Shown in pieces: positions 9,644 to 54,078 of a stretch of 64,000 nucleotides of DNA (positions within the stretch are counted from its first letter, which is position 1; each line of letters begins with the position of its first letter). The position numbers were made by a program, and so were the translations under genes. The notes beneath the pieces were generated by a model, which was not told the origin of the DNA, searched no databases, and saw only the letters and a program-made list of their open reading frames with translations. The stretch is from the NCBI RefSeq assembly GCF_030161095.1, contig NZ_BSPP01000007.1, positions 434,920 through 498,919 on the forward strand. Reading direction: 5' to 3'. This DNA comes from Cypionkella aquatica (lineage in GTDB: Bacteria > Pseudomonadota > Alphaproteobacteria > Rhodobacterales > Rhodobacteraceae).

Positions 9644-10627
9644 CTAGATGGCTGCCGCAAGTTCAAGCGCCGTGTCGCCGTCGATGATCAGGCCGCGCGC
9701 AACGCCGCTGGCCAGAAAGCCCTTCGATGCCTCTAGCTTAGAGCGGCCTGCGACAAGTGCGACGGTGCAGGTTTTGCGCAGGTCTTCAAATCCCAAGGCG
9801 ATGGTGCGCTGGTTCAGGGGATGCTGCACGGCGGCACCTTTGCCGTCAAAGAACAGCCCGTTGGTATCGCCCACCGCGCCCAACTCGCGCAGTTCTTCCA
9901 ACTCGCGCGCCGAAATCATGCCTTGGGTGCGCAGCAAAGAGCCTTCGCGCAATTCGCCTATGGAAATATAGGCCACGGTGGTCGCACGCGCGAGGCTCAG
10001 CGCCTGTTGCACAGATTGCTGCGACAGCAGAATTTCGCGCACCTCGGGCGTGTCGGCGATGAACGGCACTGGCAGGAAAAAGCCTTCGGCCCCGGTGGTG
10101 CGGGCGAAGGCGTGCAGCACCTCGAACGGGTTGTAGGCGAGGTTCGAGGTCAGCGAGCCCATCAGGCTGATGAACCGCGCGCCGGGGGCGGAAACCCCGG
10201 CCAGTTGCAGGGTCATTTGTTCCAGCGTGCGCCCCCAGCCGGTTCCCACCACCGCGCGCGGCGTTTCGGCAAGGTGGCGGCGCAGGTGGGTGGCGGCGGC
10301 GGTGCCCACGGCGCGGAAGGCAAAGCCCGACAGGATCGCTTCTGTCTCGCTGCGGTGGGCGTCTTTGCCCAAGGCGGGGGTGCAGATGCAGAAATCCAGA
10401 CCATAGTGCAAGCGAATCGCTTCCTCGACGGGCAGCAGGCCAACATTGGCGGGGTTGATCGAAATGCTGACCAAACCGGTGTCGCGGGCATCTGACAGCA
10501 GCTTGTTCACACGGGCACGGGTCAGACCCAACCGCTTGGCGGTGGCCTCTTGGTTCAGACCGCCAACATAATACAGCCAAGCCGCGCGGGCCATAAGGAT
10601 ATGATCTTCCTGAATTTCTCCGGCCAT
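9644..10627 (-). CDS. SorC/DeoR-type sugar-binding transcriptional regulator
   Basis: The 327-residue protein has an N-terminal helix-turn-helix (ARAAWLYYVGGLNQEATAKR, then LGLTRARVNKLLSDARDTGL) followed by a SorC-type sugar-phosphate sensor domain related to the DeoR sensor fold (RAVVGTGWGRTLEQM near residue 128, GDTNGLFFDGKG near residue 255). Start 10627 (MAGEIQEDH) is chosen because the frame upstream of it runs into the operator palindrome at 10665-10697. It is divergent from the sugar ABC importer, so it very likely represses the importer/dehydrogenase/kinase operon and responds to a phosphorylated sugar made by the FGGY kinase. Confidence 0.92.
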   Translation of the reverse strand: MAGEIQEDHILMARAAWLYYVGGLNQEATAKRLGLTRARVNKLLSDARDTGLVSISINPANVGLLPVEEAIRLHYGLDFCICTPALGKDAHRSETEAILSGFAFRAVGTAAATHLRRHLAETPRAVVGTGWGRTLEQMTLQLAGVSAPGARFISLMGSLTSNLAYNPFEVLHAFARTTGAEGFFLPVPFIADTPEVREILLSQQSVQQALSLARATTVAYISIGELREGSLLRTQGMISARELEELRELGAVGDTNGLFFDGKGAAVQHPLNQRTIALGFEDLRKTCTVALVAGRSKLEASKGFLASGVARGLIIDGDTALELAAAI

Positions 10628-10664
10628 CTTCACGCATACTCCTCGGCTGCATCCTGGGGCTATA

Positions 10665-10697
10665 ATTACAAATGTCATGATGCTTGACAATTGTAAT
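10665..10697. promoter_or_regulatory. Palindromic operator, probably for the SorC-type regulator
   Basis: Two 13-bp half sites, ATTACAAATGTCA and TGACAATTGTAAT, are inverted with a 7-bp spacer and agree at 12 of 13 positions. The site lies 38 bp upstream of the regulator start and 80 bp upstream of the binding-protein gene, in their shared intergenic region. It is AT-rich against a GC-rich background. Assignment to the SorC protein is inferred from position. Confidence 0.72.
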
Positions 10698-10777
10698 GAG
10701 TCGTTTCATTTTTAACCTGTCGGCAGAGGACCGACGGGGGATACCGCCAGCTCGCTGGCTCAGGGAGGACATAACAT

Positions 10778-11719
10778 ATGAAAAACCGGTTTGCCGGAAT
10801 GGTAGCGGCTTGCTCGATGCTGGCCTTGATGTCGGGATCGGCGCAGGCGTTGGAGCTGGCTTGGGTTCACGCCAATGCCGCCGCACAATCTGAATCGCGG
10901 GTGAAAGCAGGCTTTGATGCGTGGCTGCAAGAGTCGGGCAAGACCGACTGGAACGTAAGCCTGCTGGACAGCGGCGGCTCGGGCGAGGCGACGGCGTCGA
11001 ACATTCAGGATGCCGCCAGCCGTGGGGTTGATGCCATTGTGATCACCATGGCCGATCTGCGCGCCAGCCGGGCGGCTTTGGATGCGGCCAAGGCCGCGAA
11101 TATCCCGGTGTTCGCGGTGGACTCGGGCTATACCGAGGGCGTTCTCGTCGATATCACCACCAATAACTGGAAGATGTCGGCCGATGTGTCTGTCTATTTG
11201 CTGGATCAGATGGGCGGCAAGGGCAATCTGATTTTCCTGCGTATGGCCGAGCATCACGGCACCCGCAAGCGCGGCGATGTGATGGAAACCGTGCTGAAGG
11301 AATACCCCGATGTGAAGGTGCTGGCCGAGCATAACATCGACTACACCGCCTTCTTTGAAGATACCAACAAGACCATGGAAGATTACGTCGCGCGTTTTGG
11401 CGATGAAATCAATGCTGTCTGGGCGCCTTGGGATGAGCCGGCACAAGCTGCCGTCAACGTGCTGAACGCTGCTGGCTTGAAGAACGTCAAGGTGATCGGC
11501 ATTGACGGCCATCCGCAAGCCGTGGCCGAGGTCTGCAAGCCCGACAGCCAGATGATCGCAACCGTCAGCCAGCCGTTTGAAAAGATGGGGGCTCAGGTGG
11601 GCGAGTGGATTCAGGAAATCATCGTCGACAAGAAAAACCCCGATGACGTTCTGCCATCGAAAACCGTCTATATGGATGCGCCGCTGGTCACCAAGAAGAA
11701 CTGCAAAGACTTCATGTGA
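10778..11719 (+). CDS. Ribose-type sugar ABC transporter substrate-binding protein
   Basis: The 313-residue periplasmic protein has a 24-residue signal peptide (ending SGSAQA) and the fold of ribose/galactose-type binding proteins: LELAWVHANAAAQSESRVKAG, a SRGVDAIVITMADL hinge segment, NIPVFAVDSGY, and VKVIGIDGHPQAVAEV near the C-terminus. It would deliver a pentose, polyol or related sugar to the ATPase and permease encoded downstream. GGGAGG precedes the gene. A GC-rich hairpin right after the stop (11727-11751) may raise the level of its transcript relative to the rest of the operon. Confidence 0.92.
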   Translation: MKNRFAGMVAACSMLALMSGSAQALELAWVHANAAAQSESRVKAGFDAWLQESGKTDWNVSLLDSGGSGEATASNIQDAASRGVDAIVITMADLRASRAALDAAKAANIPVFAVDSGYTEGVLVDITTNNWKMSADVSVYLLDQMGGKGNLIFLRMAEHHGTRKRGDVMETVLKEYPDVKVLAEHNIDYTAFFEDTNKTMEDYVARFGDEINAVWAPWDEPAQAAVNVLNAAGLKNVKVIGIDGHPQAVAEVCKPDSQMIATVSQPFEKMGAQVGEWIQEIIVDKKNPDDVLPSKTVYMDAPLVTKKNCKDFM

Positions 11720-11726
11720 TCCATCT

Positions 11727-11751
11727 GCCGGGGTGGTTTGACCGCCCCGGC
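11727..11751 (+). promoter_or_regulatory. Intercistronic hairpin after the binding-protein gene
   Basis: GCCGGGG and CCCCGGC form a perfect 7-bp stem 7 nt after the stop codon, with an 11-nt loop and no T-run. Hairpins here are common in ABC operons, where they protect the binding-protein mRNA and damp the downstream genes. Confidence 0.55.
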
Positions 11752-11780
11752 CTTGCTTTCTGACTGGAAAGGAATGGCGC

Positions 11781-13286
11781 ATGGAAATCGTGCTTTCCGA
11801 TATCACGATGCAATTCCCCGGCACGCTAGCGCTGGATGGGGTGACGGCGGGCTTTCGCACCGATGAAGTGCATGGCCTGATCGGTGAAAATGGCGCGGGC
11901 AAATCCACGCTGGTGAACATCTTGGGCGGTAGTCTGCAACCCAGCGCAGGCACGGTGCAGATTGACGGGCGCGCGGTGCGTCTGGCCTCGCCGCATGATG
12001 CGTTGTTACAAGGTATCGCCCATGTCAGCCAAGAGGGCAGTCTGGTGCCGGGACTGAACGGGGCCGAGAATATCCTGCTGGGGGCTGAACCGCGAGTGGC
12101 GGGGGCGATGATCCGCACTGGCGCATTGAAGGCCGAGGCTGAAGCACTGGTGGCAAAATGGTTTCCGCAGGTCAGGATTGATCTGGCCCGCCCGGTCAGC
12201 GAATTGCCGATGGCCGACCGCAAGGTGATTGAGATTGTGCGGGCGTTGCGTGGCGCTGCCCGTATCGTCATTCTGGACGAGCCGACCGCCACGCTGCCCG
12301 CGCGCGAAAAGGAACAATTGTGGGGCATCATTCGCCAATTGCCGAAACAGGGCGTCGGCGTGGTGTTGATCAGCCATTTCCTATCTGAAATCAAAGCTTT
12401 GTCGGATCGCATCACGGTTTTGCGCGATGGCCGCCACATCCGCACCGATCCGTCTGCGTCGATGTCAGAGCATGACATGGTCGATATGATGCTGCGCCGA
12501 TCGGGCGGGGCGAACCTGCGGGGGGCGGCGGGTGCCGCTCAATCCACCGAGGTGGTGCTGGATGTCGCGGGGTGGAGCGTCGGTGCGATTGAGGTGCCGC
12601 AGTTCCGTCTGCATGCGGGTGAAATCGTCGGCCTGATCGGGTTGACCGGGGCCGGACATTTCGGCTTTGCGCGATCCTTGCACAATCCGGTGGGCGGGCG
12701 TTGCCGTGCGATGTCGGTGGCGGGCAAGCCCGTGCGACCCGGCTCGGTGTCGCAGATGCAGAAGGCGGGCATCGCTTTGGTGCCGGATCACCGTATGGAA
12801 TATGCGCTGATCGGCGAATGGAGCGTGCGCGAAAACCTTGCGATGGTGCATCCGTCGTTTGCGGGGATTGGCGGCGGCGTGCTGTCGATGCAGCGCGAAG
12901 AGGCCGAGGCGCAGCGGGTGATGAGGCTGCTCAACGTCAAGGCGCACAGCTCGGGTCAGTTGCTGAAAACCCTGTCGGGTGGCAACAAGCAGAAAATCTC
13001 TATCGGCAAATGGCTTTACGGCGCTGAAGGCCGCTACCGGGTGATGATCTTCATCGAGCCGACCGAAGGTGTTGATATTGGCGCCAAGGCTGAAATCTAT
13101 GCCGAGATGCGGCGGCTGGCGGCCTCGGGCGTGGGCATCATCATTGCCTCGTCCGACCTTCTGGAAATCGAATCCGTGGCGCATCGCGTCATCCCCTTTG
13201 CCAATCAACGGCCCGGCCCCGAAATCGCCCAGAGCGGCTTTTCGGAAAGCGCCTTTATCGCCGCCATTTCAGGAGTCGCAGCATGA
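11781..13286 (+). CDS. Sugar ABC transporter ATP-binding protein (RbsA type, two ATPase domains)
   Basis: The 501-residue protein has two tandem nucleotide-binding domains as in RbsA/XylG. Domain 1 has an intact Walker A (GENGAGKST) near residue 37 and Walker B (VILDEPTATLP); its signature is degenerate. Domain 2, from about residue 255, has a degenerate Walker A (GLTGAGHFGFARS), an intact signature LSGGNKQKISIGKWL, and a Walker B that reads IFIEPTEGVD, with I425 where Asp is expected. The weak second Walker A is normal in this family, but the missing Walker B Asp is not something I would expect. It powers import with the permease, whose gene overlaps its last 4 nt. Confidence 0.92.
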   Translation: MEIVLSDITMQFPGTLALDGVTAGFRTDEVHGLIGENGAGKSTLVNILGGSLQPSAGTVQIDGRAVRLASPHDALLQGIAHVSQEGSLVPGLNGAENILLGAEPRVAGAMIRTGALKAEAEALVAKWFPQVRIDLARPVSELPMADRKVIEIVRALRGAARIVILDEPTATLPAREKEQLWGIIRQLPKQGVGVVLISHFLSEIKALSDRITVLRDGRHIRTDPSASMSEHDMVDMMLRRSGGANLRGAAGAAQSTEVVLDVAGWSVGAIEVPQFRLHAGEIVGLIGLTGAGHFGFARSLHNPVGGRCRAMSVAGKPVRPGSVSQMQKAGIALVPDHRMEYALIGEWSVRENLAMVHPSFAGIGGGVLSMQREEAEAQRVMRLLNVKAHSSGQLLKTLSGGNKQKISIGKWLYGAEGRYRVMIFIEPTEGVDIGAKAEIYAEMRRLAASGVGIIIASSDLLEIESVAHRVIPFANQRPGPEIAQSGFSESAFIAAISGVAA

Positions 13287-14278
13287 GCGATCTGACCCCT
13301 TCGACCACCACCGTCAGCGCCCAAAGCCCGACGGGCTTTCTGCGCAAGGATCTGGTGCAACGCTACAGCACTTTGGTCGTGCTGGTGCTGATGTTTGCGG
13401 TCTTTACCGTGACGGTGGACAAATTCATGACGCCGCAGAACCTTTTGAACATCGCGCAGCAGATTTCGATGCTGACGATTGTGGGCGCTGGGCTGACCTT
13501 TGGCTTTGCCGCCAAAGAAATGGATCTTTCGGTCGGCTTCAGTGTCGGCCTTGCTGGCGTTCTGGTACCGTTGATGCTGGTGGCAGGAGTGTCCTTGCCG
13601 CTGGCCTTGCTGGGCGGTCTTGCCGCCGGGCTTGCGATTGGTGCGGTCAACGCGGCTTTGGTGACGCTGGTGGGTATTCCGTCGCTGATTGCGACGCTGG
13701 CGACAGGCTCGATCCTGTTCGGCATCAACTTTCTGATGACCGGGGGGCGCGCGATTTATGGCGGCTTGCCGGACACGTATCTGTGGCTGGGTCAAGGCCG
13801 GGTGGCTGGTATCCCGGTGCTGGCGTTCTTTATGCTGGCAGCGGTGGCCATCGCTTGGTTCGTGATGGAGCGGACGATCTTTGGTCGCTACATCTATGCG
13901 GTCGGTGGCAACCAGAAGGCGGCAGAGCTGTCGGGCGTCAAAGTGCGCCGTTACAAAGCCGCAGCGCTGGTTGTCTGCGCGGTGTTCGCGGTGATGGCAG
14001 GCACCCTGCTTGCGGCACGGCTTGGCTCGGGCCAGCCCAACGCGGGCGAGCGCTATCTGCTGGACGGTCTGGCCACCGTGTTCATCGGTATGACCATGCT
14101 GCGCCCCGGCACGGCCACCGTCTTGGGCACTTTCTTTGGCGCGTTGTTCATCGGGGTGATCAACAATGGCCTGAACCTGATGGGCATGGACACTTACATT
14201 CAGTCAATCGTGAAGGGTGTGATCATCCTTGTCGCGGTGGCTGTGGTGTCGCGCTCCACCAAATTGAACCTTCTGTAA
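13283..14278 (+). CDS. Sugar ABC transporter permease (RbsC type)
   Basis: The 331-residue membrane protein has about 9-10 hydrophobic helices and RbsC-family motifs: NIAQQISMLTIVGAGLTFGF near residue 53, KEMDLSVGFSVGLAGVL, GIPSLIATLATGSILFGI, TIFGRYIYAVGGNQKAAELSGV and ERYLLDGLATVFIGMTM. It forms the homodimeric channel of the importer. The start overlaps the ATPase stop by 4 nt and the E1 alpha gene follows after 12 bp, so import and breakdown of the substrate are encoded on one transcript. Confidence 0.94.
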   Translation: MSDLTPSTTTVSAQSPTGFLRKDLVQRYSTLVVLVLMFAVFTVTVDKFMTPQNLLNIAQQISMLTIVGAGLTFGFAAKEMDLSVGFSVGLAGVLVPLMLVAGVSLPLALLGGLAAGLAIGAVNAALVTLVGIPSLIATLATGSILFGINFLMTGGRAIYGGLPDTYLWLGQGRVAGIPVLAFFMLAAVAIAWFVMERTIFGRYIYAVGGNQKAAELSGVKVRRYKAAALVVCAVFAVMAGTLLAARLGSGQPNAGERYLLDGLATVFIGMTMLRPGTATVLGTFFGALFIGVINNGLNLMGMDTYIQSIVKGVIILVAVAVVSRSTKLNLL

Positions 14279-14290
14279 AGATCGGAGACG

Positions 14291-15343
14291 ATGATGAACC
14301 AGCCACAGGCTGTTCAGCGGGCCGACGCCAGTTCCAACACGGATCTGCCGCAGCTCTACCGGATGATGCGCCGCATCCGCACCTTTGAAGAACGTGTCGG
14401 CGAGCTGTTCGTGCGCGGCCAATCCGCAGGCTCGATGTTGCATCTGTCGATTGGCGAGGAAAGTGCGGCAGCGGGCGTCTGTGCGGCGATGCGCGAGGGC
14501 GATACCTTTACCACCCATCACCGTGGGCATGGCATCTTTCTGGCACGTGGCGCTGATCCAAACCGGATGATGGCCGAAATTGGCGGCAAAGAGGCGGGCT
14601 ACTGCCATGGCAAAGGCGGCTCGATGCACATTGCCGATATGGGGCTGGGGCATCTTGGGGCCAATGCGATTGTCGGCGGTGGTATCCCGGCGGTGGTCGG
14701 CGCTGGCCTTGCGGCACGGCACAAGAAATCGGGTGCGATCTCGGCTGCGTTCTTCGGCGATGGCGCGACGGGGCAGGGCATCCTCTATGAAAGCATGAAC
14801 ATGGCGGCGCTGTGGTCGCTGCCGTGCCTGTTTGTCTGCATCAACAACCAATACGGCATGGGCACGCGGATTGATCAGGCGACGGCCAACCCGCGCTTGC
14901 ATGAACGTGCGCAAGCCTTTGGTCTGACAGCGGAAACCGTCGACGGTCTGGATGTCGAGGCGGTGGCCGAGGCGGGGCGGCGTCTGGTCGATGGCGTGCG
15001 TGCCGGAAAGCCTGCGTTTTTGGTGATTGATTGCTACCGCTTTTATGGCCACGCCCGCAAAGACAAATCGCCCTACCGCGATCCTGTCGAGGAAGAAGTG
15101 GGCCGCGCCAAAGACCCGGTGGCCTTTGCCCGTGCTGCGCTGATTGACCGCAAGCTGCTGGCAGAGACTGCCTTGGACACGATGGATGCCGAAGTGGCCG
15201 CCGAGATGGATGCGACCATCGACTTTACCGTGGCGCAGCACGAGCCGCCGCTGTCGTCGATGTTCCGCGATGTCTACGCACCTGAAGAGCCTGAACCCGA
15301 ACCGGTGCGCACGCGCATCGACCGGATTCTGGCGCGCGCATAA
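14291..15343 (+). CDS. Thiamine-diphosphate-dependent dehydrogenase E1 alpha subunit (acetoin/pyruvate dehydrogenase type)
   Basis: The 350-residue protein has the E1 alpha architecture: RMMRRIRTFEERVGELF, THHRGHGIFLARGAD, GKGGSMHIADMGLGHLGANAIVGGG and the TPP/Mg motif FFGDGATGQG followed by NN. Within the E1 family, the GxCxGKGGSMHIAD-type region and the separate alpha/beta subunits resemble acetoin dehydrogenase AcoA. In that complex TPP attacks the ketone and the C-C bond to the neighbouring hydroxymethine is split, the acyl part going to lipoyl-E2 and CoA. The gene sits directly after a sugar ABC permease and before E1 beta and a lipoyl E2. ATG 14294 is an alternative start. Confidence 0.93.
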   Translation: MMNQPQAVQRADASSNTDLPQLYRMMRRIRTFEERVGELFVRGQSAGSMLHLSIGEESAAAGVCAAMREGDTFTTHHRGHGIFLARGADPNRMMAEIGGKEAGYCHGKGGSMHIADMGLGHLGANAIVGGGIPAVVGAGLAARHKKSGAISAAFFGDGATGQGILYESMNMAALWSLPCLFVCINNQYGMGTRIDQATANPRLHERAQAFGLTAETVDGLDVEAVAEAGRRLVDGVRAGKPAFLVIDCYRFYGHARKDKSPYRDPVEEEVGRAKDPVAFARAALIDRKLLAETALDTMDAEVAAEMDATIDFTVAQHEPPLSSMFRDVYAPEEPEPEPVRTRIDRILARA

Positions 15344-15353
15344 GGGGATAAAG

Positions 15354-16349
15354 ATGGCACTTCAGGAACTGACTTACCGCGACGCCTTGCGCAAAGCTCT
15401 GGCCGACGCCATGACCGAAAACCCCGATGTGGTGATCATCGGCGAAGAGGTCGGCCGCTATGGTGGCGCTTATGCCGTGACCAAAGACCTGATCAAGGAA
15501 TTTGGCCCAGAACGGGTGATCGACACGCCGATTTCCGAACCTGCTATCGTCGGGGCAGCGGTCGGCGCGGCTTTGGCGGGGCTCCGCCCGGTGGCCGAGC
15601 TGATGTATGTCGATTTCATCGGCATGACGATGGATCAGCTGGCCAACCAAGCCGCCAAGATCCGCTACATGTTTGGCGGCCAGATCGGCGTGCCGATGGT
15701 GTTGCGCACGCAGGGCGGCACAGGGCGCTCGGCAGGCGCGCAGCACAGCCAAAGCCTTGAGGCCTATGTGATGCACACCCCCGGCCTGCGGCTGGCGATG
15801 CCTGCGACGGTGGCGGATGCTTATCATCTGCTGCGCCAAGCGCTGACCAAGCCCGATCCGGTGGTGTTCATCGAGCATAAGGCGTTGTATACGCTGAAAG
15901 AAACCGTCGATCTGGATGCGCCGGTGCCGGAATGGGGCAAGGTGGCGGTGCGCCGTCAAGGCCGCGATCTGGTGATCGTCACCTATTCGCGTCAGGTGCA
16001 TTACGCGATGGAGGCCGCGAAACAGCTGGCAGCCCAGGGCATCGAGGCGACCGTGATAGATTTGCGCACTTTGAACCCGCTCGATTTTGACACCATCCGC
16101 ACCGAGGTCGAAAAGACTGGCCGCGCGATGGTGGTATCGGAAGGTGTCATGACAGCGGGCGTGGCTGCCGAACTTTCAGCCCGGATTTCCGAAGAGTGTT
16201 TTGATTTCCTTGAAGATCCGGTGATCCGGGTTGCGGGCGAAGATATTCCGATTTCGGTCTCGACCGTGCTGGAAACCGGCTCGGTGCCCGGCCCGCAACT
16301 GATCTTTGAGACTGCGATGAAGCTTATGGCTGGGCGGGTGGCGGCATGA
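15354..16349 (+). CDS. Thiamine-diphosphate-dependent dehydrogenase E1 beta subunit (acetoin/pyruvate dehydrogenase type)
   Basis: The 331-residue protein shows the E1 beta pattern: LTYRDALRKALADAM, VVIIGEEVGRYGGAYAVTK, VIDTPISEPAIVGAAVGAAL, VAELMYVDFIG, RTQGGTGRSAGAQHSQS and a C-terminal transketolase domain (VIVTYSRQVHYAMEAAKQL, EATVIDLRTLNPLD). It pairs with the upstream E1 alpha as an alpha2beta2 enzyme. Start ATG 15354 follows AAGGGGATAAAG. The stop overlaps the E2 start by 4 nt. It cannot be told from sequence alone whether the physiological substrate is acetoin, a 2-keto acid or a larger alpha-hydroxyketone. Confidence 0.94.
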   Translation: MALQELTYRDALRKALADAMTENPDVVIIGEEVGRYGGAYAVTKDLIKEFGPERVIDTPISEPAIVGAAVGAALAGLRPVAELMYVDFIGMTMDQLANQAAKIRYMFGGQIGVPMVLRTQGGTGRSAGAQHSQSLEAYVMHTPGLRLAMPATVADAYHLLRQALTKPDPVVFIEHKALYTLKETVDLDAPVPEWGKVAVRRQGRDLVIVTYSRQVHYAMEAAKQLAAQGIEATVIDLRTLNPLDFDTIRTEVEKTGRAMVVSEGVMTAGVAAELSARISEECFDFLEDPVIRVAGEDIPISVSTVLETGSVPGPQLIFETAMKLMAGRVAA

Positions 16350-17869
16350 TCGTGCAAACGCTCACCATGCCCCGGCTTGGCGAGACGATGGAAGAAGGCG
16401 TCATCGTCGGCTGGATGGTCGAACCGGGTAAGCCGTTCAAGCGCGGCGATCCGATACTGGAGCTGGAAACCGACAAGACGGTGGTGGAATTTCCGGCGCT
16501 GGGCGATGGCGTGCTGCAAGAAGTGCTGGTCGGCCCAGGTGATCGTGTTCCGGTCGGCACGCCGATTGCGCGCGCCACGCTTGGCAATACCGCCGAATGG
16601 GCGGATGCGGTTCAGACCGATGCTGCAGCTGCACCCGCGCCTGCCTCTGCCCCTGCGGCGGCCGGGCTGAATATCCTGACCATGCCGCGCTTGGGCGAGA
16701 CGATGGAAGAAGGCGTCGTCGTGCAATGGCTGGTCGCCGAAGGTGCGCTTTACGGTCGCGGCGATGCGATTCTAGAGATTGAAACCGACAAGACCGTGGC
16801 CGAAGTTCCAGCGCTGTATGAAGGGCGGGTGGTGCGGATTCTGGCCCAGCCGGGTGACCGCATCACTGTCGGGCTGCCGATTGCAGAGGTTGAGGGCCAA
16901 GTTGAGGCGGCAGAGATCGTGCCCGCGACGCCGGTTGCGGCTGTTGTGACGGCAGCTCTGCCTGCGACCGCTGCACCCAGTATCAGCACCAGCGATGCCC
17001 GATTGCGTGCGACCCCGCTTGCACGCAAGATCGCGCGGCAGAACAATGTGTCGCTGCACAATCTGCAAGGCACAGGGCGGCGGGGCCGGATCGAGCGTGC
17101 GGATGTCGAGCGCGCGGCTATGCCCGTTGTGGACGTTGATGTCGAAGGCAAGGGCGGGCGGTTGCATCTGCTGATCCACGGCTTTGCCGGTGATCGCTCG
17201 GCTTGGGCCACCACTGCTGCGGCTTTGCGGCGGGCAGGACATCGCACGGCGGTGTTTGATCTGCCGGGGCATGGCAGCAATGACGCGCAGGCCAGTGATC
17301 TGAACGCGCTGACCGATGCGGCAATGGCTGTGGCCAATGGCTTGCCGGGGCCGCTGGTGCTGGTCGGTCATTCGATGGGGGCAGCGGTTGCGGTTGCAGT
17401 TTCTGCACGGCTTGGGGCCAAGGTTTCGGGCGTGGTGCTGATCACACCTGCGGGCTGTGGTCCGCAGATCGGTGCCGAATTTGTGCATGGCATGGCGGCG
17501 GCCACCACGGCAGGAGAGGTCGGCCATCTGCTGCGCCTGCTCGGCCCGAAGGGTGGCGCTGTGTCGGACAGTGTTCTGGCGCAAATGGCGGCACAGACTG
17601 CGCGCGGGCGGCTGAAACCATTGGCAACGGCGCTGGCCTCGCCCGAGGGACGCCAGCGCATTGACCTGATCCGCATGCTAGAGGCTTTGCCCGAAGGCTT
17701 GCCGATCCGGGCCTTGTTCGGGCGCGATGATCCTATCGTTTCGGCGCGCGATGCGATGAACCTGCCCGCCCGCGTGGCGGTGCATTTCCTGCCAACCGGC
17801 CATATGCCGCAATGGGACGCCACCCGCGAAGTGGTCGAATTGATCCTGAAAGGAAGCCGGGATGAGTGA
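16346..17869 (+). CDS. acoC: E2-like fusion: two lipoyl domains, E3-binding domain and alpha/beta hydrolase (AcoC type)
   Basis: The 507-residue protein contains lipoyl domain 1 (about 3-78, ETDKT with K44), an Ala/Pro linker, lipoyl domain 2 (about 109-184, ETDKT with K149), a peripheral E3-binding domain (about 218-254, RATPLARKIARQNNVSL...GRRGRIERADV) and an alpha/beta-hydrolase domain (about 272-505) with GHSMG nucleophile S343, GRDDP acid D461 or D462, and GHMPQ H486. The usual 2-oxoacid-dehydrogenase acyltransferase catalytic domain is absent. This layout is that of the acetoin dehydrogenase E2 (AcoC), where the hydrolase-fold domain takes the acyltransferase place; two lipoyl domains instead of one is less usual. 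No E3 gene is nearby, so a shared cellular E3 is inferred. Confidence 0.9.
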   Translation: MIVQTLTMPRLGETMEEGVIVGWMVEPGKPFKRGDPILELETDKTVVEFPALGDGVLQEVLVGPGDRVPVGTPIARATLGNTAEWADAVQTDAAAAPAPASAPAAAGLNILTMPRLGETMEEGVVVQWLVAEGALYGRGDAILEIETDKTVAEVPALYEGRVVRILAQPGDRITVGLPIAEVEGQVEAAEIVPATPVAAVVTAALPATAAPSISTSDARLRATPLARKIARQNNVSLHNLQGTGRRGRIERADVERAAMPVVDVDVEGKGGRLHLLIHGFAGDRSAWATTAAALRRAGHRTAVFDLPGHGSNDAQASDLNALTDAAMAVANGLPGPLVLVGHSMGAAVAVAVSARLGAKVSGVVLITPAGCGPQIGAEFVHGMAAATTAGEVGHLLRLLGPKGGAVSDSVLAQMAAQTARGRLKPLATALASPEGRQRIDLIRMLEALPEGLPIRALFGRDDPIVSARDAMNLPARVAVHFLPTGHMPQWDATREVVELILKGSRDE

Positions 17870-18197
17870 CGCAAAATCAGCGCTTGCAGCCGCGAAAACC
17901 CGGCTGGGCGGTTTTGCCAAAGGCGCCCCGACGCTGATGCAATCCTTCGGGGGCATCAGCCGCGCGGCAACCACGCCGGGCCAGTTTTCAGCCGCGCAAA
18001 AGGAATTGGTGGCGGTGGCGATTGCGGTTGCCAAAGGCTGCGAGGATTGCATCCTGTATCATCTGGACGGCGCGCGCCGTCATGGTGCCGACGAGGCCGC
18101 GCTGATCGAGGCGTTGGAAATCGCGGTCGAAATGGGCGGTGGTCCGGCGGTTATGTATGGTGCCAAGGCGCTGGACGCTTGGCGCAACCTTGCCTGA
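17862..18197 (+). CDS. Carboxymuconolactone decarboxylase / AhpD-like protein
   Basis: This 111-residue all-helical protein has the AhpD-type redox motif C60-E-D-C63 with H67 (CEDCILYHLDGA) inside a CMD domain, preceded by SAAQKELVAVAIAVAKG. Intact CxxC and His suggest thiol peroxidase or disulfide reductase chemistry; in AhpD the partner is lipoylated E2, which is notable because the gene overlaps the lipoyl E2 gene by 8 nt. A role in reducing or protecting the lipoyl groups of the upstream complex is an inference. Confidence 0.85.
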   Translation: MSDAKSALAAAKTRLGGFAKGAPTLMQSFGGISRAATTPGQFSAAQKELVAVAIAVAKGCEDCILYHLDGARRHGADEAALIEALEIAVEMGGGPAVMYGAKALDAWRNLA

Positions 18198-18221
18198 GCG
18201 CAGTCAAAAGGGAGGAGTGCG

Positions 18222-19712
18222 ATGGCCTATTATCTGACCGCCGATGGCGGCACCGAAAGCCTGCGGGCGCGTATTTATGATCTGTCGGGCACCTGTCTGG
18301 GCCAACAGGCAGTGGCTTACCCTACAAAATTCGCTCCCGGCGCGCGGGCCGAGCAGAACCCCGAGGATTGGTGGACCGCACTGGTCACCGCAACCGCTGG
18401 GGCCGTGGCCGAGGCCGGGATTGACGCAGGCCAGATCGAGGCAATGTGTTTTGCCACCACCTGCTGCACCGTGGTCGCATTGGATGAACATGGCCGCGCG
18501 CTGCGTCCTGCGCTGATGTGGATGGATGTGCGCGCCCATGCCGAAGCTGATGCCGTTCTTGCGACGGGCGATGCGGCTTTGGCGATCAATGGCGCAGGGC
18601 AGGGGCCTGTCTCGGCTGAATGGATGATCCCCAAGGCGCTTTGGTTGAAACGTAATGAACCGGCGACCTTCGATGCCGCGCATACGATCTGCGAGTATCA
18701 GGATTTTCTGGTGCTGCGGTTGACTGGCGAGCGTTGCGCCAGCTTGGACAACGCGGGGCTGCGCTGGCATTACAGCAGCCGCAACGGCGGCTGGGCGCAT
18801 GGCATTTTGGCCAAGCTGGGCCTAGAGGCTTTGGCCGAAAAATGGCCGGCCCGCGTCGTGGCCCCGGGTGAGGTGGTCGGCACTCTGAGACCGCATGCAG
18901 CGCATGCTTTGGGTTTGAAGCAAAGCGTCAAGGTGGTGCAGGGCGGCGCGGATGCGCTGATCGGAATGATCGGTCTGGGCGTGGCCAAGCCCGGCCAATT
19001 GGCGCTGATCACCGGTTCATCGCATTTGCAGTTTGGCGTGACCGAAGCCCCCTTGCACGCGCCGGGGGTTTGGGGTGCCTATCCTGACATCGTCTATCCG
19101 GGGCGCTGGATCGTTGAAGGCGGCCAGACCTCGACCGGCTCAATCATCAACTGGCTGCGGCGGCTGACTGGTGGCACGCTGGATCTGGCCGAGATGAACC
19201 TGAAAGCCGAGGCGTTGGAACCCGGCTGCGACGGTTTGATCGTGCAGGACCATTTCCAAGGCAACCGCACGCCCTATACCGATCCGCTCAGCCGGGGGGC
19301 CATCGTTGGGCTGACGCTGGCGCACGAGCCGCAGCATATTTTTCGCGCCATCATGGAGGGCATCGGCTTTGGCACCCGTGCCATTCTCGATGCGTTCAAG
19401 GCAGGCGGTTATCATTCAACCGAAATCACCGTCGGCGGCGGGGCCACAGCCTCGCGGCTATGGATGCAGATTCACGCCGATACGGCAGGACTGCCGGTGC
19501 GCATCCCCGCCAGCGCCGATGCGCCCTCGACGGGATCTGCGGTATTGGCGGCGCATGGGGCGGGGCGGTTTGCCACGATCGACGACGGTATCGCCGCGAT
19601 GGTGCGCCCCGGCAGCAGCATTGATCCGCGCCCGCGCGAGGTCGCGCTATATGATGAGATTTACCAGCATTACAAGGCGCTTTATCCGGCGCTGAAAGGT
19701 GCGCTGACATGA
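18222..19712 (+). CDS. FGGY-family carbohydrate kinase
   Basis: The 496-residue protein has the two-domain FGGY kinase layout: an N-terminal phosphate loop LTADGGTESLRARIYD (a variant of the usual DxGT), MCFATTCCTVVALDEHG, PALMWMDVRAHAEAD, and in the C-terminal domain GGADALIGMIGLG, ITGSSHLQFGVTE and VGGGATASRLWMQIHADTAGLPV with the ATP-binding adenosine motif. It phosphorylates a ketose or polyol; it resembles the ribulokinase/YpCarbK-like branch more than glycerol kinase. GGGAGG lies upstream. The product is a likely ligand of the SorC-type regulator. The following SDR overlaps its stop by 4 nt. Confidence 0.93.
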   Translation: MAYYLTADGGTESLRARIYDLSGTCLGQQAVAYPTKFAPGARAEQNPEDWWTALVTATAGAVAEAGIDAGQIEAMCFATTCCTVVALDEHGRALRPALMWMDVRAHAEADAVLATGDAALAINGAGQGPVSAEWMIPKALWLKRNEPATFDAAHTICEYQDFLVLRLTGERCASLDNAGLRWHYSSRNGGWAHGILAKLGLEALAEKWPARVVAPGEVVGTLRPHAAHALGLKQSVKVVQGGADALIGMIGLGVAKPGQLALITGSSHLQFGVTEAPLHAPGVWGAYPDIVYPGRWIVEGGQTSTGSIINWLRRLTGGTLDLAEMNLKAEALEPGCDGLIVQDHFQGNRTPYTDPLSRGAIVGLTLAHEPQHIFRAIMEGIGFGTRAILDAFKAGGYHSTEITVGGGATASRLWMQIHADTAGLPVRIPASADAPSTGSAVLAAHGAGRFATIDDGIAAMVRPGSSIDPRPREVALYDEIYQHYKALYPALKGALT

Positions 19713-20458
19713 TACGCGAGTTTGATCTGACCGGGCGTCTGGCGGTAGTGACGGGCGGTGCCGCAGGCATTGGCCGCGCCATATCCGAGGTGCTGGCCGA
19801 AGCTGGCGCCCGGGTGGTAGTGGCCGACCGCGACAGTGCAGCGGCGAAGGCGGCAGCGCAGGCTTTGGGCGGCCATGCTTTGGCGCTGGATGTGACCGAT
19901 CCCGACGCCTGCGAAACTGCAGCGCTTGCTTTGGCGGCGGAACATGGCCCGGCGGCAATTCTGGTGAACAATGCAGGCATCGTTCAGAACGCGCCCGCGC
20001 TGGATGTGACGATTGCCGATTGGCGGCGGGTGATTGATGTCAACCTGCACGGCGTTTTTCACACTGCGCGGGCGTTTGGGAGGCATATGGTGGCGGCAGG
20101 CGCGGGCAGCGTGGTCAACATCAGCTCGATCTGCGGCGAGGTGACGGTGCATCCACAACCGCAGGTCGCCTATAACGCGGCCAAGGCCGGGGTGAACCTG
20201 TTGACCAAATCTCTGGCGGTGGAATGGGCGGGCCGGGTGCGCGTCAACGCCATAGCGCCGGGCTATACTGCAACGGAACTGACCTTGCTGGGGCGATCAA
20301 AGCCCGAATGGTTCAACACATGGCTTGCCGGTATTCCAATGGGCCGTCTGGCTGATCCGCGCGAAATCGCGTTGGCAGTGGCGTTTCTGGCTTCGGACGC
20401 GGCGAGCTATATCACCGGCACGGTGCTGACGGTGGACGGTGGGTATACGGCAATTTGA
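19709..20458 (+). CDS. Short-chain dehydrogenase/reductase (polyol/sugar dehydrogenase-like)
   Basis: The 249-residue classical SDR has VVTGGAAGIGRAISEVLAEAG near residue 13 (given here in part: TGGAAGIGRAI), an acidic D after the second strand (VVVADRD) indicating NAD preference, NNAG near residue 87, NISSICG with the catalytic Ser, YNAAKAG with Tyr/Lys, and the PGYTATELT loop. It is coupled to the FGGY kinase by an ATGA overlap, so oxidation of a polyol to the ketose that the kinase then phosphorylates is a reasonable inference. The exact substrate is not known. Confidence 0.92.
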   Translation: MIREFDLTGRLAVVTGGAAGIGRAISEVLAEAGARVVVADRDSAAAKAAAQALGGHALALDVTDPDACETAALALAAEHGPAAILVNNAGIVQNAPALDVTIADWRRVIDVNLHGVFHTARAFGRHMVAAGAGSVVNISSICGEVTVHPQPQVAYNAAKAGVNLLTKSLAVEWAGRVRVNAIAPGYTATELTLLGRSKPEWFNTWLAGIPMGRLADPREIALAVAFLASDAASYITGTVLTVDGGYTAI

Positions 20459-20469
20459 CGGGGGGAAAC

Positions 20470-21225
20470 ATGAGCGGAAACGGACGTATCGCGCTGGTCA
20501 CTGGCGCAAGCCGCGGCATCGGCAAGGCAATTGCATTGGGGCTGGCCACACGCGGCTTTGATCTGGTGTTGAACGATATCGCAGCGCAGGCCGCAACACT
20601 GCAGGAAACAGCGGCTGAGGCGCGCACGCATGGCGGGCGCGTGATCGCTTTGCATGCCGATGTCTCGAACAAGGCGCAGGTTCAGGCGATGGTTGCGGAT
20701 GCGGTGGCGCAGATGGGCACCATTCACGCCGTGGTCAACAATGCGGGCATCCTGCGGGCCTCGGATGTCGAAAACTGCCCCGAGGATTATTGGGACAGCG
20801 TGATGGCGATCAATGCCAAGGGCACGTTCCTTGTGGTGCAGGCGGTTTTGCCGATCATGAAGGCGCAAAGCTATGGCCGGATCTGCAATATCTCGTCCAT
20901 CGGTGGCAAACATGGCGCGCCCGAGCAGGCACATTACTCGGCCTCAAAGGCGGCCGTGATGGGGTTCACGCGGGTGCTCGCGCAAGAAGTCGGGCCTTTG
21001 GGCATCACCGCGAACTGCATCTGCCCCGGCATCATCCTGACCGATATGGGGCGGGTCAATCTGGAAGATGCGGCGATCCGCGATGCGTGGAAAGCCAAGA
21101 CTGCAATGGCCCGCATTGGCGCACCCGAAGATGTGGCGGGCCCGGTGGCGTTTTTCTGCTCAGACGACAGCGCGTTTGTGACCGGCCAGACGCTGAACGT
21201 CGATGGCGGGATTGTGCTGTCGTGA
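20470..21225 (+). CDS. Short-chain dehydrogenase/reductase (FabG-like)
   Basis: This 251-residue SDR starts at ATG 20470 after a strong GGGGGAAAC site; an in-frame ATG at 20455 would add five residues overlapping the previous stop. Motifs are VTGASRGIGKAIALGLA, NDIAA after the second strand, NNAGILRASD, NISSIGG, HYSASKAAV and PGIILTDMG. It ends with the conserved VTGQTLNVDGGI. It is the last gene of the sugar operon; a strong hairpin follows at 21234-21267. It may oxidise a second hydroxyl of the same substrate. Confidence 0.92.
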   Translation: MSGNGRIALVTGASRGIGKAIALGLATRGFDLVLNDIAAQAATLQETAAEARTHGGRVIALHADVSNKAQVQAMVADAVAQMGTIHAVVNNAGILRASDVENCPEDYWDSVMAINAKGTFLVVQAVLPIMKAQSYGRICNISSIGGKHGAPEQAHYSASKAAVMGFTRVLAQEVGPLGITANCICPGIILTDMGRVNLEDAAIRDAWKAKTAMARIGAPEDVAGPVAFFCSDDSAFVTGQTLNVDGGIVLS

Positions 21226-21606
21226 TAACAGGCGGTTCTGCGCAGCCGCATCTCGCTGCGTAGAACCGTCGCAAGCCCACATCTGCACGCAGGCTGAGCG
21301 TGATCAGCCCTGTGAAAGCGTGGCGCGCCGCCAGAAAGAGCGCGCACGCTGCTTCCGCGCCAAGATTTTGCAGCGTTGGTCGCACCAAGTTTTGCGATCT
21401 TGCGTGACATGATGTGCTGCACCAGCCGCTAAACGACCAAGGTTTTTCTAACACGCATATTGATGCGTCCGCTTGGGCGACAAGGCTGGTCTGGTGGGTC
21501 GCAAAAGGCTTCGCGGACGCCCGAAACACGACCCACAGAGCTGTCTAACTTTTGGCGTGGCTATTCACGGGTTTTTTTCATAGCACTGCATCAACGCGAT
21601 GGCGCT
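21226..21606. other. 381-bp intergenic region
   Basis: Apart from the hairpin at 21234-21267 no gene is supported. Open frames on the minus strand exist but lack family motifs. The composition stays GC-rich up to about 21440 and becomes more AT-rich just before the flavoprotein gene, where its promoter would lie. Confidence 0.5.
21234..21267 (+). terminator. Hairpin after the sugar operon
   Basis: Two 13-nt arms starting GGTTCTGCGC and ending TAGAACC pair with a single G-T position, with an 8-nt loop, 8 nt after the last SDR stop codon. No T-run follows; a terminator role is inferred from position. Confidence 0.5.
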
Positions 21607-46698: not shown

Positions 46699-47946
46699 AT
46701 GACAATAGGCGCAAATCAGCGGATCAATGCAGCACGCCTGTGGGACAGCCTTGATGCGATGGCGCAGATCGGCCCCGGCGTGGCAGGCGGCAACAACCGC
46801 CAGACCCTGACCGATGCCGACAGCGCGGGCCGCCATTTGTTCGCCGATTGGTGCAAGGCTGCTGGAATGACGATGGGCGTTGACACCATGGGCAACATGT
46901 TCGCCACCCGCGCAGGCACCGATCCTGACGCTTTGCCTGTCTATATGGGGTCGCATCTCGACACGCAGCCCACCGGCGGCCGCTATGACGGCGTGCTCGG
47001 CGTGCTTGGGGCGTTAGAAGTGGTGCGCAGCCTGAACGACATGAACATCCAGACCCGCCACCCGATTGTGGTCACGAACTGGACCAACGAAGAAGGCGCA
47101 CGCTTCGCCCCTGCCATGCTGGCCTCGGGCGTGTTTGCAGGCCTTCATACACAAGATTATGCCTATAACCGCACCGATATGGACGGCCTGCGCTTCGGCG
47201 ATGAACTCGCCCGCATTGGCTGGGTCGGCGATGAAATCGTCGGTGCCCGCAAAATGCACGCCATGCTGGAGCTCCACATCGAGCAGGGACCGATCTTGGA
47301 GGCCGAGGGCAAGGAAATTGGCGTCGTGACCCACGGCCAAGGCCTGTGGTGGCTGGAAATCACCCTGACCGGCCGCGACGCCCATACTGGCTCGACGCCA
47401 ATGGCGATGCGGGTGAACGCAGGCCTCGGGATGGCGCGGATCACCGAGCGCGTGCATCAGATCGCCATGGGTCATCAACCGGGGGCAGTGGGGGCTGTGG
47501 GGCAGGTCAAGGTCTTCCCCAATTCCCGCAACGTGATCCCCGGCAAAGTGATCTTCACCGTCGATATCCGTTCCCCCGATCAAACCAAACTCGACCTGAT
47601 GCGCGGCGAAGTCGAACGCGCAGCCCATGCAGTTGCTGCCGAGCTGGGCCTAGGCTGCTCGATTGAGGCGGTCGGCCATTTCGACCCCGTCACCTTCGAT
47701 GCAAACTTGGTGAACATCGTCCGCCAAAGCGCTGAAAAGCTGGGCTATTCCCATATGGACATCATCTCTGGCGCAGGCCACGACGCCTGCTGGATCAACC
47801 GCGTCGCCCCAACAGTGATGGTAATGTGTCCCTGTGTCGGAGGCTTGAGCCACAACGAGGCCGAAGAGATTTCCCCGGAATGGGCAGCAGCAGGGACGGA
47901 TGTTCTGCTGCACGCCGTGCTGGAAGTGGCGGGGGTGGTGGGGTGA
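46699..47946 (+). CDS. Zn-dependent N-carbamoyl-amino-acid hydrolase, probably beta-ureidopropionase
   Basis: The 415-residue protein belongs to the M20-like amidase family of N-carbamoylases and allantoate amidohydrolases: YMGSHLDTQPTGGRYDGVLG with metal-ligand His/Asp, TNWTNEEGARFAPAMLASG with the EE pair, ELHIEQGPILEAEGKEIGVV, GRDAHTGSTPM and the C-terminal SGAGHDACWINRVAPTVM. With dihydropyrimidinase and PreTA in the locus, the likely step is N-carbamoyl-beta-alanine to beta-alanine, CO2 and ammonia. It is the first gene of a long operon behind two RutR-type operators. The next gene starts with GTG inside its stop codon. Confidence 0.92.
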   Translation: MTIGANQRINAARLWDSLDAMAQIGPGVAGGNNRQTLTDADSAGRHLFADWCKAAGMTMGVDTMGNMFATRAGTDPDALPVYMGSHLDTQPTGGRYDGVLGVLGALEVVRSLNDMNIQTRHPIVVTNWTNEEGARFAPAMLASGVFAGLHTQDYAYNRTDMDGLRFGDELARIGWVGDEIVGARKMHAMLELHIEQGPILEAEGKEIGVVTHGQGLWWLEITLTGRDAHTGSTPMAMRVNAGLGMARITERVHQIAMGHQPGAVGAVGQVKVFPNSRNVIPGKVIFTVDIRSPDQTKLDLMRGEVERAAHAVAAELGLGCSIEAVGHFDPVTFDANLVNIVRQSAEKLGYSHMDIISGAGHDACWINRVAPTVMVMCPCVGGLSHNEAEEISPEWAAAGTDVLLHAVLEVAGVVG

Positions 47947-48695: not shown

Positions 48696-48715
48696 GTAAT
48701 CAAGAGGTATCACCC

Positions 48716-51404: not shown

Positions 51405-51444
51405 ACCGCATTTGTTACCCAAAGATGAACGATATGGAAACCGT

Positions 51445-54012: not shown

Positions 54013-54034
54013 GACTTGCGAAACTGAGACTTGC
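54005..54034 (+). repeat. 15-bp tandem duplication at the permease 2 stop codon
   Basis: GAAACTGAGACTTGC occurs twice in direct tandem, followed by a third partial GAAAC. The first unit contains the TGA stop of permease 2. It looks like a recent slippage duplication in the 66-bp spacer before the binding-protein gene. Confidence 0.9.
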
Positions 54035-54078
54035 GAAACCAAAACGCCCAAAACCGGGCATCAACTTGGAGGTTGAGA

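What the first reader, a model, noticed from the sequence alone, without database searches (positions are those of the whole stretch)
10627..21225. A sugar importer and FGGY kinase joined to an acetoin-type cleaving complex: possible catabolic route for a deoxy-ketose
Seen: one divergent locus encodes a SorC regulator, ribose-type ABC importer, E1 alpha, E1 beta, AcoC-type E2, AhpD-like protein, FGGY kinase and two SDRs, with tight spacing or overlaps. Known: AcoAB/C cleaves acetoin, an alpha-hydroxy methyl ketone, to acetyl-CoA and an aldehyde; FGGY kinases such as xylulokinase can phosphorylate 1-deoxyketoses. Inference: a 1-deoxyketose (or the matching deoxy-polyol after SDR oxidation) has the same CH3-CO-CHOH unit, so kinase plus this complex could split the phosphorylated sugar into acetyl-CoA and a triose phosphate, in effect a catabolic reverse of DXP synthase. 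Alternatives are plain acetoin use or a different branched or oxidised sugar.
Basis: partly seen in the sequence, partly recalled or inferred. Interest (0 to 1): 0.78.

Follow-up and report, generated by a model that had tools for sequence, protein, structure and literature searches.

The report
Sugar kinase with acetoin-type cleaving complex
A bacterial sugar-uptake operon carries a kinase that is usually inherited together with its own branch of an acetoin-type cleaving enzyme complex, so the cell may phosphorylate an imported deoxy-sugar and split it into acetyl-CoA and a three-carbon phosphate, a reaction that resembles the first step of isoprenoid synthesis run backwards; the actual substrate has not been shown.

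Summary
The operon is real, gene for gene. The kinase-complex link is not accidental. At the cut-offs used, kinase and this E1 branch occur in the same 10 of 295 sampled genomes of the host's family. In 80 named loci found with the kinase, E1 lies within 6 kb in 62. The 23 kinase-linked E1s placed in a tree, one each beta-proteobacterial, verrucomicrobial, Deinococcus-group and delta-proteobacterial, form one clade with the window's, apart from acetoin- and pyruvate-type E1s. The importer varies; SDR2 and a ketose-3-epimerase-like gene never occur together. A SorC operator is found in 31 of 45 regions. E1 beta has a tyrosine aligned with Tyr392 of the DXP-synthase GAP pocket in 61 of 61. A parallel plasmid cassette joins acetoin-type E1/E2 to a DXP-reductoisomerase-like gene (adjacent in 32 of 46 such records). 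I favour cleavage of a 1-deoxyketose phosphate, most likely DXP, to acetyl-CoA and triose phosphate. Substrate and activity are inferred.

The parts
9644..10627 (-). SorC-family sugar-binding regulator, divergent; start taken as ATG at 10627 because the upstream TTG start (10690) would overlap the inverted repeat
   Evidence: Pfam Sugar-bind 171 bits; NCBIfam DeoR 154 (cut-off 420) and LsrR 98 bits (cut-off 486)
10665..10697 (.). Inverted repeat ATTACAAATGTCA-7 nt-TGACAATTGTAAT, probable SorC operator; contains a TTGACA hexamer
   Evidence: 13-nt arms, 92% complementary; relaxed pattern, written, in 31 of 45 SorC intergenic regions incl. the window, 0.0 expected from mononucleotide shuffles, one occurrence on the + strand of the window
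10778..11719 (+). Periplasmic sugar-binding protein (CUT2/ribose type)
   Evidence: Pfam Peripla_BP_4 119 bits; no NCBIfam equivalog above cut-off
11781..13286 (+). Double ABC ATPase of sugar importer
   Evidence: Pfam ABC_tran, two stretches
13283..14278 (+). Importer permease
   Evidence: Pfam BPD_transp_2 128 bits
14291..15343 (+). ThDP-dependent E1 alpha, kinase-linked clade; HHRGH motif; loop GHARKDKSPYR
   Evidence: Pfam E1_dh 218 bits; TIGR03182 314 bits, below cut-off 394; tree and residues
15354..16349 (+). ThDP-dependent E1 beta; Tyr85 aligned with the DXP-synthase Tyr of YSTF (E. coli Y392)
   Evidence: Pfam Transket_pyr and Transketolase_C; dxs model TIGR00204 69.5 bits over residues 43-280; hhalign
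16346..17869 (+). AcoC-type E2: two lipoyl domains, E3-binding domain, alpha/beta hydrolase-fold acyltransferase (GHSMG)
17862..18197 (+). AhpD-like carboxymuconolactone decarboxylase-family protein with CxxC; perhaps redox partner of lipoyl-E2 (inferred)
   Evidence: Pfam CMD 68 bits; AhpD core domain 44.9 bits, cut-off 27.8; CxxC in 33 of 33 AhpD hits in the loci
18222..19712 (+). FGGY sugar kinase, nearest xylulokinase by model but below its cut-off
   Evidence: FGGY_N/_C; XylB 300 bits vs cut-off 380
19709..20458 (+). SDR oxidoreductase 1
   Evidence: adh_short_C2 218 bits
20455..21225 (+). SDR oxidoreductase 2
   Evidence: adh_short_C2 225 bits

Best explanation
It is a catabolic operon for an imported deoxy-ketose or deoxy-polyol. 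The SBP/ABC imports it. The two SDRs oxidise it or, as an oxidation-reduction pair, invert one hydroxyl, the step that other loci may do with a ketose 3-epimerase. The FGGY kinase phosphorylates the terminal hydroxyl. The dedicated E1 alpha/beta then attacks the 2-keto group of the CH3-CO-CHOH- end with ThDP and splits the C2-C3 bond, releasing an aldehyde phosphate. The acetyl group passes via lipoyl-E2 to CoA, and a housekeeping E3 re-oxidises E2. [quoted passage not shown] SHOWN: gene content, inherited linkage, distinct E1 clade, acetoin-type motif, conserved operator-like repeat. INFERRED: substrate, order of steps, E3 supply, AhpD role, operator function.
For: Same 10 of 295 genomes for kinase and E1. 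E1 within 6 kb of the kinase in 62 of 80 loci, on the kinase's strand in all 62. One E1 clade, 100% bootstrap. HRGH or HRSH in 61 of 61 kinase-linked and HRGH in 6 of 6 DRL-linked E1 alphas and in both acetoin-type references; YR in the PDH- and BCKDH-type ones. E1 beta Tyr85 in 61 of 61; Phe in 6 of 6 DRL-linked; Phe 10 and Thr 3 of 13 others; aligned with Tyr of the DXS YSTF motif, and E. coli DXS Y392 belongs to the GAP-binding pocket (PMC11019550, passages). Basic residues at E1 alpha 256 in 61/61 kinase-linked and 6/6 DRL-linked, and at 259 in 61/61 and 5/6; in the 13 others mostly Glu/Met/Val at 256 and Pro/Ala at 259. AcoC-type E2 above the NCBIfam cut-off. Parallel DRL-E1-E2 cassettes, with DXR-II residues G121/T229/H250/R320 in 6 of 6 E1-linked DRLs, against 0 of 26 DLO-like proteins with the T229/H250 pair. 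One plasmid with DRL, E1/E2/E3 and FGGY (Priestia). Ketose-3-epimerase-like gene in 12 of 62 loci.
Against: No substrate evidence for any protein. Kinase-linked and DRL-linked E1s are not shown to be sisters (bootstrap 47), so the DXP argument does not transfer automatically. The DRL-linked E1 betas themselves have Phe, not Tyr, at the DXS-like position. The FGGY in the Priestia cassette is only 41% identical and its E1s group with the DRL clade. In the sequence alignment the DXS arginines taken as R420 and R478 face Thr119 and Ile173 or Lys176; the nearby Arg118 and Lys176 are common to most E1 betas shown and so not special. HRGH also occurs in 5 compared E1s outside the two acetoin-type references, including acyl-CoA-linked ones. 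No transporter, SDR or epimerase is universal in the neighbourhoods. 8 loci with full flanks lack E1. DhaK-like and MtnA/MtnK genes in some relatives point to more than one substrate. A host with its own DXS and DXR could already use DXP for isoprenoids.
Confidence: 0.45

Rival explanations
1. The kinase product is an ordinary (1-hydroxy) ketose phosphate such as a pentulose 5-phosphate, and the complex acts like an oxidative transketolase that makes glycolyl-CoA and an aldose phosphate.
For: FGGY is nearest xylulokinase. Ketose-3-epimerase-like and DhaK/DhaL genes occur in part of the relatives. The E1 alpha pocket region differs from acetoin- and pyruvate-type E1s (one-residue insertion, Ser48 in 59 of 61, and Met49).
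Against: E2 is of the acetyl-transferring AcoC family. E1 shares the HRGH motif of acetoin-type E1s. No glycolyl-CoA or glycolate enzyme was recognised among the 11 operon proteins scanned with Pfam.
Confidence: 0.15
2. AI-2-like route: the operon is a functional analogue of lsr (SorC regulator, CUT2 importer, FGGY kinase, acetyl-CoA-forming cleavage) acting on phospho-DPD or a reduced form of it.
For: Same architecture as recalled for lsr (LsrR SorC, LsrACDB, LsrK FGGY, LsrF making acetyl-CoA + DHAP). Weak LsrR (98 bits) and LsrK (161 bits) matches.
Against: Both matches are far below the curated cut-offs (486, 528) and weaker than DeoR and XylB. No LsrF or LsrG match among the operon proteins scanned (lists cut at 25 rows for three proteins).
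Confidence: 0.1
3. Dedicated pyruvate dehydrogenase paralogue: the sugar route ends in pyruvate and the complex is an ordinary PDH under local control.
For: Annotation pipelines call the beta subunits pyruvate dehydrogenase; E1 beta passes a PDH E1-beta subfamily model (352 vs 321 bits).
Against: E1 alpha fails the PDH equivalogs (314 vs 393.85; 195 vs 411.35), has HRGH not YR and lies apart from the sequence taken as the host's PDH. The genome has other E1_dh genes, the best-scoring pair taken as PDH. No pyruvate-forming enzyme was recognised in the operon.
Confidence: 0.1
4. Plain acetoin or 2,3-butanediol catabolism, with SDRs as butanediol dehydrogenases and the kinase a bystander.
For: AcoC-type E2; SDRs score on butanediol-dehydrogenase models, but generically and below cut-off.
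Against: E1 far from the Acinetobacter L163 operon, which is annotated with acetoin reductase, and its Klebsiella relative L123. The kinase is co-inherited in 10 of 10 genomes. A sugar regulator and importer are present.
Confidence: 0.05
5. 5-Deoxypentose salvage: the operon handles 5-deoxyribose-type sugars from 5'-deoxynucleosides, by a route different from the known DHAP shunt.
For: In L086 the frames of SorC, epimerase-like, MtnK and MtnA overlap in one run divergent from FGGY-E1-E2; L072 has MtnA-, MtnK-, aldolase-SDR- and RbsD/FucU-like genes beside the cassette.
Against: Only 2 of 62 E1-bearing loci have MtnA near the kinase. The DHAP shunt (PMC6079011 and PMC12632272, abstract starts in the listing) already degrades these sugars to DHAP and an aldehyde. 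The window operon has none of these genes.
Confidence: 0.1

Closest known systems
Acetoin dehydrogenase complex (AcoA/AcoB/AcoC); references here: Acinetobacter L163, annotated with acetoin reductase, and Klebsiella L123, taken as the aco operon from recall
   Same: E1 alpha/beta fold, HRGH motif, acyl-transferring lipoyl E2 and the chemistry proposed
   Different: Separate E1 clade; linked to sugar importer, SorC regulator and FGGY kinase; no E3 or acetoin reductase in the operon; E1 alpha pocket and loop residues differ
DXP synthase (DXS)
   Same: Same carbon skeleton logic in reverse; E1 beta aligns with the DXS C-terminal half including the catalytic Glu region and Tyr of YSTF
   Different: Two-subunit E1 coupled to lipoyl-E2/CoA; proposed to be catabolic; no Arg at the aligned R420/R478 columns
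lsr operon for autoinducer-2
   Same: SorC regulator, CUT2 importer, FGGY kinase, proposed acetyl-CoA + triose phosphate output (lsr facts recalled)
   Different: LsrR/LsrK models not met; ThDP/lipoyl cleavage instead of an LsrF-type thiolase
DXR-II (DRL), alternative DXP reductoisomerase; PMC3847144 (passages)
   Same: The E1-linked DRLs carry its diagnostic residues
   Different: Here next to E1-E2 and PTS/ABC importers on plasmids, so probably catabolic; the window operon itself has no DRL
DHAP shunt for 5-deoxypentoses, PMC6079011 (abstract start only)
   Same: Phosphorylation, isomerisation, then C-C cleavage of a deoxypentose phosphate
   Different: Aldol cleavage, no ThDP or CoA

Membership tests
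Acetoin dehydrogenase complex | AcoC-type E2 above curated cut-off | tested here: met
   PRK14875 370.9 vs 307 bits
Acetoin dehydrogenase complex | E1 groups with E1 of acetoin-type operons | tested here: not met
   Kinase-linked E1s form their own clade (100%); L123 and L163 elsewhere
Acetoin dehydrogenase complex | HRGH motif in E1 alpha (a marker derived here, not from literature) | tested here: met
   HHRGH 60 and HHRSH 1 of 61; HRGH in 7 of 13 others, both acetoin-type references among them; YR in the other 6
Acetoin dehydrogenase complex | Activity on acetoin | not testable with these tools
   needs enzyme assay
Pyruvate dehydrogenase E1 | E1 alpha above TIGR03182 or TIGR03181 cut-off | tested here: not met
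   314 vs 393.85; 195 vs 411.35
Pyruvate dehydrogenase E1 | E1 beta above the subfamily model PRK09212 | tested here: met
   352.3 vs 321; the equivalog PRK11892 is not met (338.7 vs 454)
Xylulokinase (XylB) | TIGR01312 cut-off | tested here: not met
   300.2 vs 380.25
lsr / AI-2 system | LsrR and LsrK models | tested here: not met
   98 vs 486; 161.1 vs 528
lsr / AI-2 system | LsrF/LsrG present in the operon | tested here: not met
   no such match among the operon proteins scanned, in the rows shown
DXR-II (for the parallel cassette, not the window) | Residues G121, T229, H250, R320 (positions from PMC3847144, placed by the alignment) | tested here: met
   6 of 6 E1-linked DRLs and 4 of 4 other DXR-II-like ones (L112, L115, L124, L125); 26 DLO-like proteins as contrast: T229 and H250 in 0, G121 in 25, R320 in 3; L138 and L144 left out for a stop in the read stretch
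DXR-II (for the parallel cassette, not the window) | MEP-forming activity | not testable with these tools
   needs enzyme assay
DXP synthase-like substrate pocket in E1 beta | Tyr392, Arg420, Arg478 equivalents | tested here: inconclusive
   Tyr present in 61 of 61; no Arg at the other two aligned columns; which DXS Arg is R478 was placed from recall; no structural superposition done

The most novel reading that the evidence does not exclude
[quoted passage not shown] Methylerythritol-type compounds (via PTS, PfkB or FGGY kinase plus a DXR-II-like enzyme) and 1-deoxyketoses (via the window's FGGY kinase) converge on DXP, which dedicated acetoin-type E1/E2 complexes split into acetyl-CoA and glyceraldehyde 3-phosphate. 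Plant methylerythritol and perhaps 2-methyltetrols from isoprene oxidation (both recalled) would be natural inputs.
Probability: 0.33. Interest if true: 0.87.

Novelty: new variant of a known kind. Interest (0 to 1): 0.64.

Why it matters
DXP is taught as a biosynthetic intermediate. A kinase and a CoA-acetylating complex that consume it, or a close 1-deoxyketose phosphate, would open a carbon route from methylerythritol-type compounds to central metabolism. It would give a function to a clade of genes annotated as pyruvate dehydrogenase that is spread over several phyla, and explain DXR-II-like genes on rhizobial plasmids. It also makes a clear, cheap enzyme test possible.

Tried and rejected
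Literature: ten searches. Judged from titles and abstract starts of the rows listed, none describes a kinase-linked acetoin-type complex or catabolism of DXP or methylerythritol. Some lists were cut (15 of 36; 20 of 403; 10 of 37), and only open-licence PMC papers are held. PMC3847144 and PMC11019550 were seen as passages only; in PMC3847144 the words catabolism, acetoin and pyruvate dehydrogenase have 0 occurrences.

DRL in Alphaproteobacteria at large (78 of 337 genomes): none of the 30 best loci has an E1 in the about 1.5 kb fetched either side of the domain. 28 of the 30 are 32-38% to the queries. All 26 of these that were aligned lack T229 and H250, so they are of the DLO-like type. The two DXR-II-like ones (L124, L125) have no E1 beside them. 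The E1 link therefore belongs to a subset seen mainly on rhizobial plasmids.

Sisterhood of kinase-linked and DRL-linked E1: not supported (47). A class-wide sample gave only 3 of 385 genomes with an E1 beta at E<=1e-95, the host included, too few to use. No near match of 14291-19712 in E. coli genomes. The flavin amine oxidase at 21604-23289 is not counted as part: no homologue in the 62 E1-bearing loci.

The GHSxG motif appeared in 31 of 62 E2 frames and HxxxDG in 4; Pfam on eight E2s shows alpha/beta-hydrolase in four and the classical acyltransferase in four. Structure prediction was not used, because substrate specificity would not follow from it.

Full report
OBSERVATION. SorC (9644-10627, minus) diverges from SBP, ATPase, permease, E1 alpha, E1 beta, E2, AhpD-like, FGGY kinase, SDR, SDR (10778-21225, plus). 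E2 has two lipoyl domains, an E3-binding domain and an alpha/beta-hydrolase domain, and passes the NCBIfam AcoC model (370.9 vs 307 bits). Nine of the eleven operon proteins were scanned on NCBIfam (not ATPase and permease). In the rows shown (25 at most for E2 and the two SDRs) no other one reaches an equivalog cut-off, so the names xylulokinase, ribose binder and PDH E1 alpha are not met. E1 beta passes a PDH E1-beta subfamily model (352 vs 321).

LINKAGE. A kinase search of 295 genomes from the host's family found 10 with a match at E<=1e-120. An E1 beta search of 295 genomes found 10 at E<=1e-100, and they are the same ten handles. The random-overlap value is 8e-19, which ignores shared ancestry. 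In nine of ten the two genes lie within about 3 kb on one contig; in G108 they are on two contigs. E1 lies within 6 kb in 62 of 80, on the kinase's strand in all 62. Of the 18 without E1, 10 have under 6 kb on at least one side. Eight have full flanks and no E1: L046 (74% identity), L076 (65%) and six at 52-55%. For kinases of 60% identity or more, E1 is present in 52 of 58; below 60%, in 10 of 22. So the link weakens with distance, and distant kinases have other partners.

MODULES. Among the 62 loci: SBP of the window type (>60% identity) 31, SDR2 29, AhpD 31, ketose-3-epimerase-like 12, DhaK-like 8 (in L047 some 6 kb away beside a second set of sugar genes), aldo-keto reductase 5, SorC 52, E2 60. 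No locus has both SDR2 and the epimerase-like gene, or the window-type SBP and the epimerase-like gene. Reading: kinase + E1 + E2 is the core, and importer and front-end enzymes are exchanged. That the two SDRs do the epimerase's job is inference. The epimerase-like protein of L060 scores 152 bits on the psicose-epimerase model, below its cut-off of 300.

REGULATION. A 13-nt inverted repeat at 10665-10697 fits ACAAATGT-N8-TTGACA followed by a TTGT-like end. A relaxed pattern, written after inspecting, is present in 31 of 45 SorC-to-first-gene regions, with 0.0 expected from mononucleotide shuffles, and once on the + strand of the 64-kb window. By first gene: the window, 26 of 32 SBP-first regions, 4 of 6 E1-alpha-first regions (L060, L063, L067, L104) and 0 of 6 kinase-first regions. 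So in several lineages the repeat directly precedes the complex, with no importer between.

THE E1 CLADE. A maximum-likelihood tree of joined E1 alpha + beta, 43 taxa, puts all 23 kinase-linked relatives entered (22 of the 62 loci, and L024) plus the window in one clade. They come from Alphaproteobacteria, Caballeronia, a Verrucomicrobiota MAG, a Thermus/Deinococcus-group MAG and a Deltaproteobacteria MAG. The stem is long (0.67) with 100% support. The acetoin-type references (Klebsiella, Acinetobacter) and the host's presumed PDH are elsewhere. The DRL-linked E1s, with the C. difficile one, form another 100% clade; its sisterhood with the kinase-linked clade is unresolved (47). The Priestia E1s, though a distant FGGY gene lies on the same plasmid, fall in the DRL clade. 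Group-specific positions (61 kinase-linked, 6 DRL-linked, 13 others, among them the C. difficile one): E1 beta Tyr85 61/61 (Phe 6/6; Phe 10 and Thr 3), Gln120 and Arg125 61/61; E1 alpha His76 61/61, Arg256 and Lys259 61/61, with K/R at 256 in 6/6 and R at 259 in 5/6 of the DRL-linked. hhalign to the host's own DXS (probability 97) aligns Tyr85 with the Tyr of YSTF. PMC11019550 (passages) lists E. coli Y392 with R420 and R478 as the GAP-binding pocket. No arginine stands in the other two aligned columns, so this support is partial. E1 alpha has HRGH (60 of 61; HRSH once) as in 7 of the 13 others, both acetoin-type references included, against YR in the PDH, BCKDH and acsA-linked ones.

A PARALLEL CASSETTE. 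A Priestia plasmid carries E1-E2-E3, two SorC-type genes, a SAF-domain protein and a distant FGGY kinase. The SAF-domain protein is DRL_cat, PF21135, 233 bits, a relative of the solved structure 3UPL. In PLSDB plasmids, 46 records hold a DRL like that of S. meliloti Rm41 (E<=1e-80) and 46 hold its E1 alpha. Comparing the two lists, 33 records hold both: in 32 the genes are adjacent and in Priestia about 8.3 kb apart. The 13 DRL records without such an E1 are Phyllobacterium 5, Pararhizobium 1, Listeria 3, Ligilactobacillus 3 and Enterococcus 1. Of the 13 E1 alpha records without such a DRL, 12 are C. difficile and one is a Rhizobium. Most of the 32 are rhizobia and relatives, so they are not independent events. 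Neighbours include PTS-glucitol, ABC importers, PfkB kinase, lpdA or lipA. The E1-linked DRLs carry the four DXR-II residues (6 of 6), as do four other DXR-II-like ones. T229 and H250 are absent in 26 of 26 DLO-like proteins, while G121 does not discriminate. PMC3847144 (passages) reports that tested DLO proteins failed to complement a DXR mutant. This is the strongest hint that acetoin-type E1/E2 complexes can have DXP as substrate. It concerns another clade, not the window's.

E3 AND AhpD. The operon lacks E3, and two E3 genes above cut-off lie elsewhere in the genome. AhpD overlaps E2 by 8 bp and has CxxC (33 of 33 hits). By analogy with the M. tuberculosis AhpD-DlaT pair (recalled) it may exchange electrons with lipoyl-E2.

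CONCLUSION. The link between kinase and complex is firm for close relatives, the acetoin-type chemistry is well supported by family and motif, and the 1-deoxyketose-phosphate (DXP) substrate is the best single candidate but unproven. I did not find such a system in print within the searches listed in Tried and rejected.

Noticed in passing
L113, L114, L116, L117, L122, L109: Plasmid cassettes DRL(DXR-II-like)-E1alpha-E1beta-E2 with PTS-glucitol, ABC or PfkB neighbours: a candidate catabolic reverse MEP route, arguably a better finding than the window itself.
   Followed up: partly
L118: Clostridioides difficile plasmid operon SorC-E1alpha-E1beta-E2-lpdA followed by PTS genes; its E1 belongs to the DRL-linked clade although no DRL is on the fetched stretch.
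   Followed up: no
L086:3363-7440: Frames of SorC, ketose-3-epimerase-like, MtnK and MtnA overlap in one run, divergent from FGGY-E1-E2: links 5-deoxypentose salvage genes to the cassette.
   Followed up: partly
L095, L114, L109, L123 versus window, L054, L084, L098, L116: E2 catalytic domain is swapped between the classical acyltransferase type and the alpha/beta-hydrolase (AcoC) type beside related E1s.
   Followed up: no
L046:9617-11509: A close kinase (74%) with AhpD but no E1 or E2 within 10 kb either side, a counter-example to the linkage.
   Followed up: no
L106:10308-11626: In S. meliloti Ak57 the E2 region is annotated as two separate genes.
   Followed up: no
window 46699-55059: M20 peptidase-family hydrolase, amidohydrolase and an ABC importer with NMT1-type binding protein (Pfam); they look like reductive pyrimidine breakdown, which is my inference.
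   Followed up: no
G000:C7:692312-694483 and G000:C14:13467-15638: E1 genes with identical scores on two contigs, a duplication or an assembly artefact.
   Followed up: no
G000:C4:319353 and C19:39749: Host genome has two DXS genes above cut-off and one DXR.
   Followed up: no
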